Source: Actinomycetota bacterium (GTDB lineage: Bacteria; Actinomycetota; Actinomycetes; Mycobacteriales; Mycobacteriaceae). Taken from it: DNA of 10,506 nt. Positions within the stretch are counted from its first letter, which is position 1. The number at the start of each line of letters is the position of its first letter. The notes under the pieces were generated by a model that saw only the letters and a program-made list of their open reading frames with translations, had not been told where the DNA came from and did no database searches. Location of the stretch: positions 1 to 10,506 of the forward strand of contig SYAA01000343.1 in assembly GCA_005789055.1 (NCBI GenBank), written 5' to 3'. Shown here one piece after another: positions 3,001 to 10,506 of the stretch. Made by a program: the position numbers and the translations under genes.

Positions 3001-4701
3001 ATCCAGGCTGCGGTTGACAATGATGCCGACATCCTGCACGACACTCTCGCCGCCGGCGCCGGCGTGGGCGGCAGCCTGGGCAAGTGGTCTCCGGATTCCT
3101 CCGAGACCGTGCACGACAGATTGTCGACGATCGTGGGCAGTGCGATGGGTTATGAGCCCGAAGATCTCCCGTGGGAAGTGCCGTTGATCGAGTTGGGACT
3201 GGACTCGTTGATGGCGGTGCGCATCAAGAACCGCGTCGAGTACGACTTCGATCTGCCACCGATTCAGCTGACCGCAGTTCGCGATGCCAACCTCTACGCC
3301 GTTGAGAAGCTCATCGAATACGCGATCGAGAACCGCGAAACGGTGTCGGAGTTGCACGAACACCAGAAAACGCTCACCCCGGAGCAGATCGCTGCCGAGC
3401 AGGCGGCGATCGCATCCGGGGAACTACCGCCGGAACTGGCGGCCAAGCTTGCCGCCAAACATCCCGAACTCCAGTTGGACGCACCGCCCCCGCCGCCCCC
3501 GCCGTCAGACCCGGCCGGACCGAACGCCGTCGCCGGACCGTCGGCCCAGTCGCCGGCCGCGGTCGCCGGCAAGGCGCTGAGCCAGCAGGCGGTCGTGGAG
3601 GCCCTCGGTACCGACGTCCCGCCCCGGGAGGCAGCCGAACGCATCACCTTCGCCACCTGGGCCATCGTCACCGGCAAGTCTCCGGGTGGCATCTTCAACG
3701 AACTGCCGAAGATCAACGACGAGACCGCGGCCAAAATCGCCGAACGGCTTTCCGAACGCGCCGAGGGCACCATCACCGTCGAGCAGGTGAAAGCGGCAGC
3801 GACCATTGAGGAGTTGGCCACCGACGTCCGTGAATATCTGGAGGCCGGTGAACTCGAGGGGTTCGTCCGCACCCTGCGAGCGCCGAAAGAAGGCGTCGAT
3901 GCCGTGCCGGTGTTCGTGTTCCACCCGGCCGGTGGCTCGACGGTGGTCTACGAGCCGTTGCTCAAGCGACTGCCGCCGGACACCCCGGTCTACGGACTTG
4001 AACGGGTCGAAGGTTCCATCGAGGAACGCGCGCAGCAATACGTTCCCAAACTTCTTCAGATCGGTGGTGCGGGTCCGTTCATCCTGGCCGGCTGGTCTTT
4101 GGGCGGGGCGCTGGCTTACGCGTGTGCCGTCGGACTCAAACGTGCCGGAGCCGACGTGCGGTTCGTCGGACTGATCGACACGGTGCGGGCCGGCGAGGAA
4201 GTTCCACAGACCAAAGAGGAGATTCGCGCCCGGTGGGACCGCTACGCGTTGTTCGCGCAGCGCACCTTCAATGTGGAAATTCCGGCCATACCGTACGAAC
4301 AACTCGAGAACCTCGACGACGAGGGGCAGGTCCGGTTCGTGCTTGACGCCGTCAAGGCCAGCGGAGTGAACATCCCGGGCGGAGTCATCGAACATCAGCG
4401 GACGTCGTATCTGGACAACCGCGCACTGGACACTGCCAACATCGAGCCGTTCGACGGTCATGTGACCCTCTACATGGCGGATCGGTATCACGATGACGCA
4501 ATCATGTTTGAACCCCGCTACGGAATTCGCCAACCGGACGGCGGATGGGGCGAGTTCGCCGCCGATCTGGAAGTCGTGCCGATCGGCGGTGAGCACATCC
4601 AGGCGATCGACGAGCCGTACATTGCCAAGGTGGGCGCTCACCTCAGCGAGGCGATCAACCGCATCCAGGGCATCGAGACGCGGGAGACGCAGCCGAAGTG
4701 A
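1..4701 (+). CDS. pks13: Pks13, mycolic acid condensing polyketide synthase (5' end outside window)
   Basis: This type I PKS performs the final Claisen-type condensation of mycolic acid synthesis, joining a FadD32-activated meromycolyl chain to a carboxylated long-chain acyl unit. The frame is open from base 1 (PQQRLALELTWEALE), so the gene enters from upstream; the TTG at 13 is internal. Numbering from that TTG, the KS carries Cys81 (DTACSSS), His217 (EAHGTGT) and His257 (NVGHLES). The AT (about 515-840) has Ser603 in GQSLGEA, and Arg628 sits where the family arginine binds the carboxylate. The ACP has Ser1065 (GLDSLMA). The C-terminal thioesterase has Ser1362 (GWSLGG), Asp1389 and His1528 (GGEHIQ), with the spacing of M. 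tuberculosis Pks13 (S1533/D1560/H1699, from memory). About 200 residues, which in the family include an N-terminal ACP, are missing only because the window starts here. A seven-proline linker lies at 3484-3504. The KS-AT-ACP-TE order and near-continuous similarity to Pks13 make the call firm. No frameshift is seen. Confidence 0.97.
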   Translation, partial: PQQRLALELTWEALEGAHIPASSLRGKSVGVYVGSSTNDYSYLAMMDPRTAHPYAITGTASSIIANRVSYFFDFRGPSVAVDTACSSSLVAVHSGVQALRAGEADVVLAGGVNALVTPAVTLGFDEVGGVLAPDGRIKSFSADADGYARSEGAGMLVLKRLDDARRDGDEILAVIAGSAVNHDGRSNGLLAPNPDAQADVLRRAYRDAGVNPRTVDYIEAHGTGTILGDPIEADALGRVVGRGREAEQPALLGAVKSNVGHLESAAGAASLAKVALALHHNKIPASINYAGPNPYIDFDAVHLRVVETATDWPRYSGHAIAGVSGFGFGGANAHLVLREVLATDLIEPEPEPEVAPTAPASPEAEAVYVGGVRMDEYGEFIDEEDTGGDGGIYQPGDEVEPALPGLTDEACRLLAIAREELEAAEQPVPVVPLAVSGFLTSRKKATAAVLADWIDSPAGRASPLDSIGRALSRRNHGRSRAVVMAHDHDEAVKGLRAIAEGKTSPLVYSADGPISNGPVWVLAGFGAQHRKMGKSLYLRDEVFADWINKVDALVQDELGYSIVELILDDSQDYGIETTQVTIFAIQIALGELLRHHGAKPAAVVGQSLGEAAAAYFAGGLSLADATRTICARSHLMGEGEAMLFGEYIRLMALVEYSAEEIAGVFTDFPDLEVCVYAAPTQTVIGGPPEQVDAIIARAEAEGKFARKFATKGASHTTQMDPLLGELAAELQGITAHPLTIGYFSTVHEGGYIRPGGDPIHEVDYWKKGLRHSVYFTQGIANAVDNGYTTFLELAPNPVALMQVGLTTAAAGLHDAQLIATLARNSDEVTSVVAAMAQLYTLGHDLDFTTLFTRAVDPDDYADIPPTQFTRKPHWLAAQFSADGSGILPGTHVAMPDGRHVWEYAAQGPTDLAALVKAAAVQVLPDASLAASEQRAVPGEGARLVTTLTRHPGGASVQVHARIDESFTLVYDAIVARSGATTNLPAAVATGVAVIAPVAEQIQAAVDNDADILHDTLAAGAGVGGSLGKWSPDSSETVHDRLSTIVGSAMGYEPEDLPWEVPLIELGLDSLMAVRIKNRVEYDFDLPPIQLTAVRDANLYAVEKLIEYAIENRETVSELHEHQKTLTPEQIAAEQAAIASGELPPELAAKLAAKHPELQLDAPPPPPPPSDPAGPNAVAGPSAQSPAAVAGKALSQQAVVEALGTDVPPREAAERITFATWAIVTGKSPGGIFNELPKINDETAAKIAERLSERAEGTITVEQVKAAATIEELATDVREYLEAGELEGFVRTLRAPKEGVDAVPVFVFHPAGGSTVVYEPLLKRLPPDTPVYGLERVEGSIEERAQQYVPKLLQIGGAGPFILAGWSLGGALAYACAVGLKRAGADVRFVGLIDTVRAGEEVPQTKEEIRARWDRYALFAQRTFNVEIPAIPYEQLENLDDEGQVRFVLDAVKASGVNIPGGVIEHQRTSYLDNRALDTANIEPFDGHVTLYMADRYHDDAIMFEPRYGIRQPDGGWGEFAADLEVVPIGGEHIQAIDEPYIAKVGAHLSEAINRIQGIETRETQPK

Positions 4702-9154: not shown

Positions 9155-10506
9155 CCTCTGGGGCAGACGCCCACGCCGAACTTCGTCTCTGGCTGGTCGA
9201 CTACCTCATCACGAACCTCTCCTGCGATCCGGCCGAGATCGACCCGGATGCCCCATTCAACGAATTGGGTGTGGGATCCCGCGATGCCGTGGTCCTTTCC
9301 GGTGAGCTGTCCGAGCACCTCGGCCGGCCGGTGTCGCCGGTGGACTTCTGGCAGAACCCCACCATCAACGCTCTGGCCACCGCGCTTTTGGCGCCCGAGG
9401 CGGAGACGGGGGGTGCGGCGCCGGGTGCGATGGACGGTGCGCTGACCGAACCGATCGCCATCATCGGACTGGGCTGCCGACTCCCCGGAGACATTCACGG
9501 CCCCGAGCAACTGTGGGAGTTTTTGGCCGCGGGTCGCTCAGCGGTCTCAACGGTGCCCGAAGGGCGCTGGCAGGCGTTCGAGGATGGCTCGCAGAAAACG
9601 TCGACGGCCCTAGCGGAAACGACCCGGTTCGGTTCGTTCCTGAGTGACGTCGATGCCTTCGATGCCGATTTCTTCGCCATCACGCCGCGCGAAGCAGACC
9701 GGATCGATCCGCAGCAACGTCTGCTTCTCGAGGTGGCCGTCGAGGCCTTCGAGCATGCCGGCATTCCGGCCGAGACACTCCAGCGTTCGCAGACCGGAGT
9801 CTTCGTCGGCTCGTGTGTCAGCGAGTACGGTTACCTCGCCTCGCGCGACCTCGACAAGATCGACGCCTGGACCGGCACCGGCGGCGCATTGAGCATCATC
9901 GCCAACCGGCTGTCTTATTTCCTGGACCTTCGTGGCCCGTCGCTCACGGTCGACACCGCATGTTCGTCGTCGTTGGTTGCCGTGCACCTGGCGTGCCAGA
10001 GCCTGCGTACCGGCCAATCGGAACTGGCGATTGCTGCTGGAGTGAACCTGATCCTGTCGCCGGTCGTGACACGCAGTTTCGATGCCGCCGAAGCGATGTC
10101 GCCCACCGGTGCCTGCCATACCTTCGATGCCGCCGCCGATGGCTTCGTCCGCGGCGAGGGTTGCGGTGTCGCCGTTCTCAAGCGGCTCTCGGATGCGCTC
10201 CGTGACGGCGACCGGGTCCTGGCGGTCATTCGCGGCTCCGCGGTCAATCAGGACGGGCGCTCCAACGGTCTGATGGCGCCGAATCCGGCCGCCCAGGCCG
10301 CGGTGCTGCGCGCGGCGTGCGCCGATGCCGGCCTGCAGCCATCGGAGGTCGACTACGTCGAGGCACACGGAACCGGCACGCTGCTCGGCGACCCGATCGA
10401 AGCCCGCGCCCTCGGGGCGGTGTACGGCCGGGGACGGCAGCCCGACATGCCGCTGCTGGCCGGCGCGGTCAAGACCAATCTCGGCCACCTGGAAGCAGCG
10501 GCGGGC
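9151..10506 (+). CDS. ppsA: PpsA-like modular type I polyketide synthase, N-terminal part (runs off the window)
   Basis: This is the start of a modular PKS that should receive the acyl chain from the upstream ligase. The ATG at 9151 overlaps the ligase stop as ATGA, with no strong Shine-Dalgarno, which suggests translational coupling. The frame stays open to the window end (452 codons). Residues about 5-85 form an acyl carrier domain with the phosphopantetheine serine at 43 (GVGSRDAV), a loading carrier as in PpsA and Pks13. A ketosynthase follows from about 98 (EPIAIIGLGCRLPG), with Cys271 (DTACSSS), His406 (EAHGTGT) and His446 (NLGHLEA), so it should condense. The opening (LVDYLITNLSCDP), the carrier domain and the KS read most like PpsA from memory. 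In M. tuberculosis PpsA performs the first extension in phthiocerol synthesis. Later domains lie outside the window, so the product cannot be fixed; other FAAL-loaded mycobacterial PKSs remain possible. Confidence 0.85.
   Translation, partial: MTSGADAHAELRLWLVDYLITNLSCDPAEIDPDAPFNELGVGSRDAVVLSGELSEHLGRPVSPVDFWQNPTINALATALLAPEAETGGAAPGAMDGALTEPIAIIGLGCRLPGDIHGPEQLWEFLAAGRSAVSTVPEGRWQAFEDGSQKTSTALAETTRFGSFLSDVDAFDADFFAITPREADRIDPQQRLLLEVAVEAFEHAGIPAETLQRSQTGVFVGSCVSEYGYLASRDLDKIDAWTGTGGALSIIANRLSYFLDLRGPSLTVDTACSSSLVAVHLACQSLRTGQSELAIAAGVNLILSPVVTRSFDAAEAMSPTGACHTFDAAADGFVRGEGCGVAVLKRLSDALRDGDRVLAVIRGSAVNQDGRSNGLMAPNPAAQAAVLRAACADAGLQPSEVDYVEAHGTGTLLGDPIEARALGAVYGRGRQPDMPLLAGAVKTNLGHLEAAAG

What the first reader, a model, noticed from the sequence alone, without database searches (positions are those of the whole stretch)
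4698..10506. DIM/PGL-type locus start joined to the mycolate condensation operon
The gene order here is pks13-accD4-tesA-fadD26-ppsA. In M. tuberculosis pks13-accD4 and tesA-fadD26-ppsA are two distant loci (Rv3800c-Rv3799c and Rv2928-Rv2931, from memory). Their contiguity could reflect an ancestral arrangement later split in pathogenic mycobacteria, or an insertion of a DIM-like cluster next to accD4. Either would bear on how DIM/PGL synthesis arose. No insertion sequence, tRNA or attachment repeat marks the junction, which argues against very recent transfer.
Basis: partly seen in the sequence, partly recalled or inferred. Interest (0 to 1): 0.7.

Follow-up and report, generated by a model that had tools for sequence, protein, structure and literature searches.

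The report
Shrunken DIM-like cluster beside mycolate genes
In mycobacteria apparently from lakes, a cut-down version of the genes that build the surface wax DIM, with two large enzymes instead of five, sits directly behind the mycolic-acid genes, which suggests how this wax pathway is moved and trimmed in nature.

Summary
The gene order is real: pks13 (5' cut), accD4, tesA, a FadD26-like fatty acyl-AMP ligase, and the start of a PpsA-like PKS. Thirteen assemblies carry accD4 with tesA on one contig (one has a gene between), so it is not a chimera. It is not the classical DIM/PGL locus. Downstream, ppsA is followed directly by ppsE, then usually drrABC, papA5, a WS/DGAT, an SDR and mas; separate ppsB, ppsC and ppsD are missing. 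The "PpsA" is an A::B hybrid: PpsA-type ACP-KS, PpsB-type KR-ACP, switching inside the AT. At the same site G199 has A-B-C-D-E, and G143 probably A-C-E (contig break). Cluster-free relatives (G011, G040), and G319 with its cluster on other contigs, show the empty site: accD4 runs straight into an HTH_67 gene. This supports an inserted island, not an ancestral arrangement later split. A rooted PpsE-KS tree nests the short clusters among long ones (AU p=0.008, tested after seeing a tree), favouring module loss. Identical AT stretches in ppsA and ppsB (711 bp in G199) offer a recombination route. Most likely product, by inference: a short 1,3-diol wax diester. Eight literature searches showed no report of this locus.

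The parts
1..4701 (+). pks13 (mycolate condensase), 5' end cut by the contig end
   Evidence: NF040607 2456 bits, cut-off 2100; KS, AT, ACP and thioesterase domains
4698..6248 (+). accD4, carboxyltransferase subunit; follows pks13
   Evidence: PF01039; hit at E<=1e-180 in 37 of 37 genomes of the genus examined
6246..6251 (+). left junction of the island: accD4 stop TAG followed at once by the tesA start ATG
   Evidence: TGATG overlap in G158, G226, G285, G423 and G033
6249..6980 (+). tesA, type II thioesterase (GHSMG at residue 84)
   Evidence: PF00975; 6fvj TesA E 1.5e-71; motif
6981..7387 (.). spacer between tesA and the FAAL gene, possible promoter region (not tested)
   Evidence: no + strand ORF of 150 aa or more begins here; lower DNA identity to G001 than the flanking genes
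7388..9154 (+). fatty acyl-AMP ligase, FadD26-like
   Evidence: NF004509 883 bits; joins the fadD26-position FAALs of four DIM-type loci, SH-aLRT 95; FadD23 and FadD28 as closest PDB hits
9151..10506 (+). start of the hybrid ppsA: N-terminal ACP (residues 14-79) and KS (from residue 100), runs off the window
   Evidence: PF00550 and PF00109; KS in the PpsA clade; relatives' C-terminal half is PpsB-type

Best explanation
The window holds the left end of a compact DIM-type lipid cluster that was inserted, with its first genes in the same direction, between accD4 and an HTH_67 gene of the core mycolate/arabinogalactan locus (kinase and emb follow). The cluster is reduced: an A::B hybrid PpsA module and a PpsE module remain. 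Shown by sequence: gene content, the empty site, the hybrid and the nested position in trees. Inferred mechanism: the FAAL loads a fatty acid on the N-terminal ACP of hybrid PpsA; PpsA adds one extender unit and its KR leaves a hydroxyl; PpsE adds a second unit without reduction; TesA assists release; decarboxylation and reduction by the clustered SDR give a short 1,3-diol; PapA5 esterifies it with methyl-branched acids from Mas; DrrABC, where present, exports it. Inferred origin: homologous recombination between near-identical AT stretches of neighbouring ppsA and ppsB removed one module and made the hybrid, and PpsD and PpsC were lost (A-B-C-D-E to A-C-E to A-E). The tesA start at the accD4 stop codon suggests that its translation, at least, is tied to the mycolate operon (inferred).
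For: Downstream architecture. ppsA is followed directly by ppsE on one contig in 17 genomes (G000 on C440, G001, G159, G158, G226, G299, G155 = M. xanthum, M. tusciae, G414, G349, G423, G033, G178, G138, G319, G345, G099). A-C-E in M. komossense and G143; A-B-C-D-E in G199, one AhpC-like gene away from accD4 on the same contig. No PpsC ortholog in 10 of the 11 genomes searched, some of them incomplete (G000 55%, G423 73%); G199 has one at 68% (G143 was not in that set). Empty site: G011, G040 and G319 run accD4 straight into the HTH_67 gene, and G011 and G040 on into the kinase; in G423 all of tesA to mas plus a CMD-like gene lies between accD4 and the same HTH_67-kinase-Emb genes, in G001 up to the kinase, where its contig ends, and in G033 before HTH_67 and Emb with no kinase match. 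Near-twin pair G199/G299: accD4 branches 0.004-0.005, same flanks, different module formulas. Hybrid: KS sister to G199 PpsA (SH-aLRT 97); post-AT part in the PpsB clade, with the switch inside the AT. Repeats: exact 711-bp identity of ppsA and ppsB in G199, 1,358 bp in M. leprae, but 35 bp in M. gordonae. Reduction: A-E one clade, A-C-E next, long clusters outside; AU test rejects a clade of long-cluster PpsE KS domains, p=0.008. Motifs present: PapA5 HHALGDG, TesA GHSMG; KS of hybrid A, AT and ACP motifs.
Against: No lipid has been measured. The regex for a canonical KR motif did not match PpsB-type KRs, although Pfam finds the KR domain in hybrid A. The regex for the KS cysteine motif missed every PpsE, M. 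leprae's included, and the HQM motif looked for in the PpsE condensation domain was found in G001 and M. leprae but not in the window's genome. AT motifs are ambiguous: hybrid A has VASH like M. leprae PpsD and Mas, whereas M. leprae PpsA-C have VAPH; PpsE has HGFH or HAFH. Own C440, G159 and G285 have no drrABC between ppsE and papA5, and own and G159 no WS/DGAT before mas (DrrA search); G226 and G158 have no mas between the SDR and the CMD-like gene. So the pathway may be decaying or altered in some lineages. A::B hybrids also occur in longer clusters (IS-1496, M. shimoidei, G086), so the hybrid may be older than the reduction. The AU test was named after a first tree had been seen, and the forks that carry the nesting have bootstrap 90-92. 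The C299-C440 join rests on a 120-bp overlap. G143's accD4-tesA-FAAL and its A-C-E part lie on different contigs.
Confidence: 0.66

Rival explanations
1. The two-module cluster is the ancestral form, and DIM arose from it by gain of modules B, C and D, so the window shows a relic of how DIM began.
For: A::B-type hybrids occur in several lineages, so the hybrid could be the original PpsA; many carriers are environmental assemblies (titles).
Against: Rooted on other Pps and Mas KS domains, short-cluster PpsE is nested among long-cluster PpsE, and a clade of long-cluster PpsE is rejected (AU p=0.008; named after a first tree was seen). A-C-E clusters sit between A-E and long ones. M. uberis shows an A::B fusion that looks derived, its relative M. 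leprae having A and B apart.
Confidence: 0.15
2. The cluster is decaying or makes no DIM-like wax in the small-genome lake mycobacteria; only single enzymes, such as TesA, are retained for mycolate or general PKS use.
For: Own C440, G159 and G285 lack drrABC at its usual place; G226 and G158 lack mas there; lake-clade assemblies are mostly 1.9-3.6 Mb, several incomplete.
Against: FAAL, PKS, PapA5 and SDR frames are open and PapA5 and TesA carry catalytic motifs; the A-E cluster is found in at least four lineages of the Pks13-AccD4 tree, including genomes of 5.6-6.3 Mb.
Confidence: 0.14
3. The junction is an assembly or binning artefact.
For: The window is a fragmented assembly of 450 contigs, 55% complete.
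Against: accD4 and tesA share a contig in 13 assemblies, the other 12 with 66-96% TesA identity to the window.
Confidence: 0.02

Closest known systems
DIM (PDIM) locus tesA-fadD26-ppsA-E-drrABC-papA5-mas (gene list recalled; M. leprae read here from tesA to drrC, four further DIM-type clusters for the papA5-mas end)
   Same: Order tesA, FAAL, PpsA..., PpsE, DrrABC, PapA5, with mas in opposite orientation in G034, G037, G260 and G193 as here; FAAL joins the fadD26-position FAALs; KS domains fall in the PpsA and PpsE clades
   Different: Two PKS genes instead of five; PpsA is an A::B hybrid; no separate PpsB, C or D; SDR and usually WS/DGAT in the cluster; located behind pks13-accD4; no fadD28 beside mas in the stretches read
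M. komossense A-C-E cluster (L053, L159, L160) and G143 A-C-E (L189)
   Same: M. komossense: TesA 78% to the window, PpsA 73% and PpsE 74% to G001; same hybrid PpsA
   Different: A PpsC module between A and E; in M. komossense the order is FAAL-tesA, the FAAL is only 58% identical and the site is another one
pks13-accD4 mycolate condensation operon
   Same: pks13 and accD4 themselves are ordinary and conserved
   Different: In 13 of the 15 accD4 loci without this island, an HTH_67, DUF4331, kinase or Emb match lies within 4 kb of accD4, not tesA; M. komossense has Emb after about 10 kb and M. stellerae none in the stretch read

Membership tests
DIM/PGL locus | FadD26-type FAAL loading the PKS | tested here: met
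   Joins the FAALs in fadD26 position of four DIM-type loci, SH-aLRT 95, midpoint root; loading itself not tested
DIM/PGL locus | Five PKS modules ppsA to ppsE | tested here: not met
   A::B hybrid and E only in 17 genomes with a continuous stretch; no PpsC in 10 of 11 genomes
DIM/PGL locus | PpsE with KS-AT-ACP-condensation architecture | tested here: met
   Pfam on L013 PpsE; trees
DIM/PGL locus | drrABC in the cluster | tested here: inconclusive
   All three genes in 13 carriers (G001, G299, M. xanthum, M. tusciae, G349, G423, G033, G178, G226, G158, G143, G345, G099), drrA cut by a contig end in G414 and G319, absent at that place in own C440, G159 and G285, not reached in G138 and G378
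DIM/PGL locus | PapA5 diester transferase | tested here: met
   Own C440: PF16911; 1q9j E 6.5e-109
DIM/PGL locus | mas in the cluster | tested here: met
   Own C440 (cut by the contig end) and other carriers read that far; not at that place in G226 and G158
DIM/PGL locus | fadD28 beside mas | tested here: not met
   No FAAL match beside mas in the stretches read
DIM/PGL locus | mmpL7 and lppX export genes | not tested
   no query was run for them
DIM/PGL locus | Produces phthiocerol dimycocerosates | not testable with these tools
   needs lipid chemistry

The most novel reading that the evidence does not exclude
A single chromosomal slot in the mycolate locus acts as a docking site for exchangeable DIM-type cassettes (A-E and A-B-C-D-E shown there, A-C-E likely). 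Recombination between duplicated AT and KS segments deletes or swaps modules, so lake mycobacteria make a family of shortened DIM-like waxes co-expressed with mycolate condensation.
Probability: 0.4. Interest if true: 0.76.

Novelty: new variant of a known kind. Interest (0 to 1): 0.62.

Why it matters
DIM is often described as a lipid of pathogenic mycobacteria (for example in passages of PMC3089613). Here DIM-type clusters of graded size sit in assemblies whose titles point to lakes and other environments, one version beside the mycolate genes. The A-E / A-C-E / A-B-C-D-E series, the near-twin pair G199/G299 and the AT-repeat route make module loss and gain in this pathway testable, and a two-module system is a simpler object for enzymology than five modules. 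If active, it predicts a new, shorter diol diester in environmental mycobacteria.

Tried and rejected
Ancestral contiguity later split in pathogens: not supported, because empty sites exist within the same clade and the cluster occupies other sites in other lineages. G319 is a draft of 760 contigs, so its empty site is weaker evidence than G011 and G040.

Assembly error: rejected (13 assemblies).

Very recent transfer marked by a mobile element: no tRNA in the window, no junction repeat longer than 11 bp in three genomes, GC between 0.60 and 0.71 along the window. No search for insertion sequences was run. This does not exclude transfer by homologous recombination: G159 and G001 differ sharply downstream of about codon 500 of ppsA (about 91% DNA identity before, about 73% after), which looks like a cassette swap.

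Viral contigs: none encodes a relative of this PpsE.

TesA tree: TesA of G199 and of IS-1496 are long branches that meet, so I do not use that join.

The species tree used as yardstick is Pks13 C-terminus plus AccD4 only, with several weak forks; two rows (G285, G299) have AccD4 alone.

In one search G285 is labelled A-E although its A and E lie on separate contigs; the other 16 A-E rows are shown on one contig, G138 was too short to enter, and G143 and M. komossense are the two A-C-E rows. One search holds 9 A-E rows and one A-C-E row; its AU test was named after the tree had been seen. G378 was left unresolved (short contigs).

Literature: eight searches listed nothing describing this locus; the library lacks most subscription papers and bioRxiv.

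Full report
What is in the window. The finding's gene order is correct. ORFs and domains give pks13 (1-4701, 5' cut), accD4 (4698-6248), tesA (6249-6980), a fatty acyl-AMP ligase (7388-9154) and the ACP-KS start of a PpsA-like PKS (9151 to the end). TesA's closest solved structure is TesA (6fvj); the ligase's are FadD23 and FadD28. The window is contig C299 of a fragmented assembly (2.2 Mb, 450 contigs, 55% complete); its contig ends at 10506. Several close relatives come from records whose titles point to lakes (Loclat, Erken, Lac Pavin, place names recalled as lakes).

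The join is real. Scanning named genomes and 396 genomes of the genus showed a sharply separated group of ligases: 17 of 396 at 869 bits or more, the next at 791. accD4 and tesA lie on one contig in 13 assemblies: 11 with accD4, tesA and FAAL together, plus G159 and G158 where a contig break falls inside tesA. In one of them, G299, an AhpC-like gene stands between accD4 and tesA. In the window accD4's stop is followed at once by the tesA start; in five others stop and start overlap as TGATG.

What lies downstream. In G001 the cluster continues FAAL - ppsA (1581 aa, ACP-KS-AT-KR-ACP) - ppsE (1483 aa, KS-AT-ACP-condensation) - drrA, drrB, drrC - papA5 - WS/DGAT (reverse) - SDR - mas (reverse), then a carboxymuconolactone-decarboxylase-like (CMD) gene. 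ppsA is followed directly by ppsE in 17 genomes where one contig shows both. G143 and M. komossense have ppsA-ppsC-ppsE. G199 has the full ppsA-B-C-D-E set on the contig of its pks13-accD4, with an AhpC-like gene between accD4 and the FAAL and its tesA between ppsD and ppsE. A PpsC search of 11 genomes, some incomplete, found an ortholog (68%) only in G199; others peaked at 38-44% over long alignments, or 47-60% over shared KS-AT parts. The window's genome (contig C440) and G159 have no drrABC and no WS/DGAT between ppsE and mas, and G285 has papA5 directly after ppsE; G159, 97% complete, has no DrrA hit at E<=1e-40, and G000 only one at 40%. G226 and G158 have no mas between the SDR and the CMD-like gene. 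G345 and G099 carry A-E clusters with another FAAL (59-60%) in the order FAAL-tesA.

Insertion, not ancestral contiguity. In G011 and G040, lake-clade relatives with no cluster of this kind (G011 has a longer, different one on another contig), accD4 runs directly into an HTH_67 gene and a Ser/Thr kinase; in G319, a draft whose cluster is on other contigs, accD4 runs into the same HTH_67 gene. In G423 the whole tesA-to-mas block lies between accD4 and the same HTH_67 gene, kinase and Emb; in G001 the contig ends after the kinase; G033 shows the HTH_67 gene and Emb but no kinase match. In M. tusciae and G178 accD4 is followed by a DUF4331 gene and the kinase, and the cluster is elsewhere (410 kb away in G178), at a site whose left flank matches that of M. 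komossense. M. xanthum, G345 and G099 are also unlinked, M. xanthum and G099 by lying on different contigs. Pks13 plus AccD4 put the linked genomes in two separate lineages, the lake clade and G199/G299. G199 and G299 are near-identical at AccD4 (branches 0.004-0.005), share the AhpC-like gene on the left and a 770-aa gene on the right (93% over the 451 aa present in G299), yet carry A-B-C-D-E and A-E. So one site holds different module formulas. G143 would add A-C-E, but its accD4-tesA-FAAL and its A-C-E part are on two contigs.

The PpsA is a hybrid. Its KS falls in the PpsA clade, sister to G199 PpsA (SH-aLRT 97); its part after the AT falls in the PpsB clade. Sliding comparison with G199 shows PpsA-like identity up to about residue 500, equal identity to A and B in the AT (601-800), and PpsB-like identity after about 1000 (74-83% against 16-29% in windows 1201-1500 of G001 and G159, apart from 66% in G159's last window). 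ppsA and ppsB share an exact 711-bp stretch there in G199 and 1,358 bp in M. leprae, but only 35 bp in M. gordonae. Recombination between such repeats would make exactly this hybrid; M. uberis shows the same fusion independently. I infer this route; it was not observed.

Direction of change. In the PpsE tree A-E clusters form one clade (17 rows, SH-aLRT 98; one of them, G285, labelled A-E by assumption), the two A-C-E clusters are next, and all 14 long-cluster rows lie outside. With other Pps and Mas KS domains as outgroup, a clade of long-cluster PpsE is rejected (AU p=0.008), so reduction is favoured over an ancestral two-module state. The test was named after a first tree had been seen, and the forks that carry this nesting have bootstrap 90-92, so I hold it at moderate strength. 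A::B hybrids also occur in longer clusters, so the fusion may be older than the loss of C and D.

Cassette exchange continues. G159 and G001 are about 91% identical in DNA up to about codon 500 of ppsA and about 73% after it. The window's C440 is 95% identical to G159 over 11.8 kb. PpsE and PapA5 of own/G159 group with G299, not with G001. The window's contig break lies near this change, so the C299-C440 join is likely but not proven.

Function. From the families, the most likely product is a short diol wax diester: FAAL loading, one extension with ketoreduction on hybrid PpsA, one unreduced extension on PpsE, TesA-assisted release, reduction by the SDR, acylation by PapA5 with Mas-made acids. 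Motifs are kept in PapA5 and TesA. The AT motif of hybrid PpsA (VASH) is that of M. leprae PpsD and Mas rather than PpsA-C (VAPH), so methylmalonyl-CoA is possible; that these motifs report extender choice is recalled. Against this: the KR regex missed PpsB-type KRs, the KS regex missed every PpsE, and the HQM motif of the PpsE condensation domain was not found in the window's genome. All of this is inference; no lipid is known.

Literature. [quoted passage not shown] Against that, 156 of 396 genomes here carry a PpsE-type protein at E<=1e-290. PMC4816395 (passages) reports three of 20 DIM/PGL genes in M. brisbanense. PMC11361433 (passages) reports that PKS domain arrangement predicts altered diol stereochemistry in M. 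spongiae. PMC6438904 (passages) was also looked at. None of these passages describes this locus, nor did the eight search listings.

Noticed in passing
L041, L167, L168 (M. uberis, G431): ppsA and ppsB appear fused into one 1615-aa A::B gene, unlike the related M. leprae; this would change its DIM diol.
   Followed up: partly
L038 11743-21743, continued in L097 (M. leprae ppsA/ppsB): ppsA and ppsB share an exact 1,358-bp stretch over the KS-AT linker and AT.
   Followed up: partly
L013, L016, L019: Public record titles name Bifidobacterium breve, but the contigs carry mycobacterial mycolate and DIM-type genes: probably mislabelled metagenome bins.
   Followed up: no
L188 (G226), L194 (G158): mas is missing between the SDR and the CMD-like gene in these two carriers.
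   Followed up: no
L045, L046, L192 and similar loci: DIM-type clusters with two FAAL genes (tesA-FAAL-ppsA-FAAL-ppsA...) recur; module formulas differ widely around a constant PpsE.
   Followed up: partly
L072, L080, L082, L083 (M. triplex, M. ahvazicum and kin): A FAAL-mas-papA5-drrC group, with drrC and papA5 on the opposite strand, without pps matches between.
   Followed up: no
L057 (M. brisbanense): Carries a FAAL and a PKS 61% identical to the hybrid PpsA of G001, although PMC4816395 counted only three DIM/PGL genes in a strain of this species.
   Followed up: no
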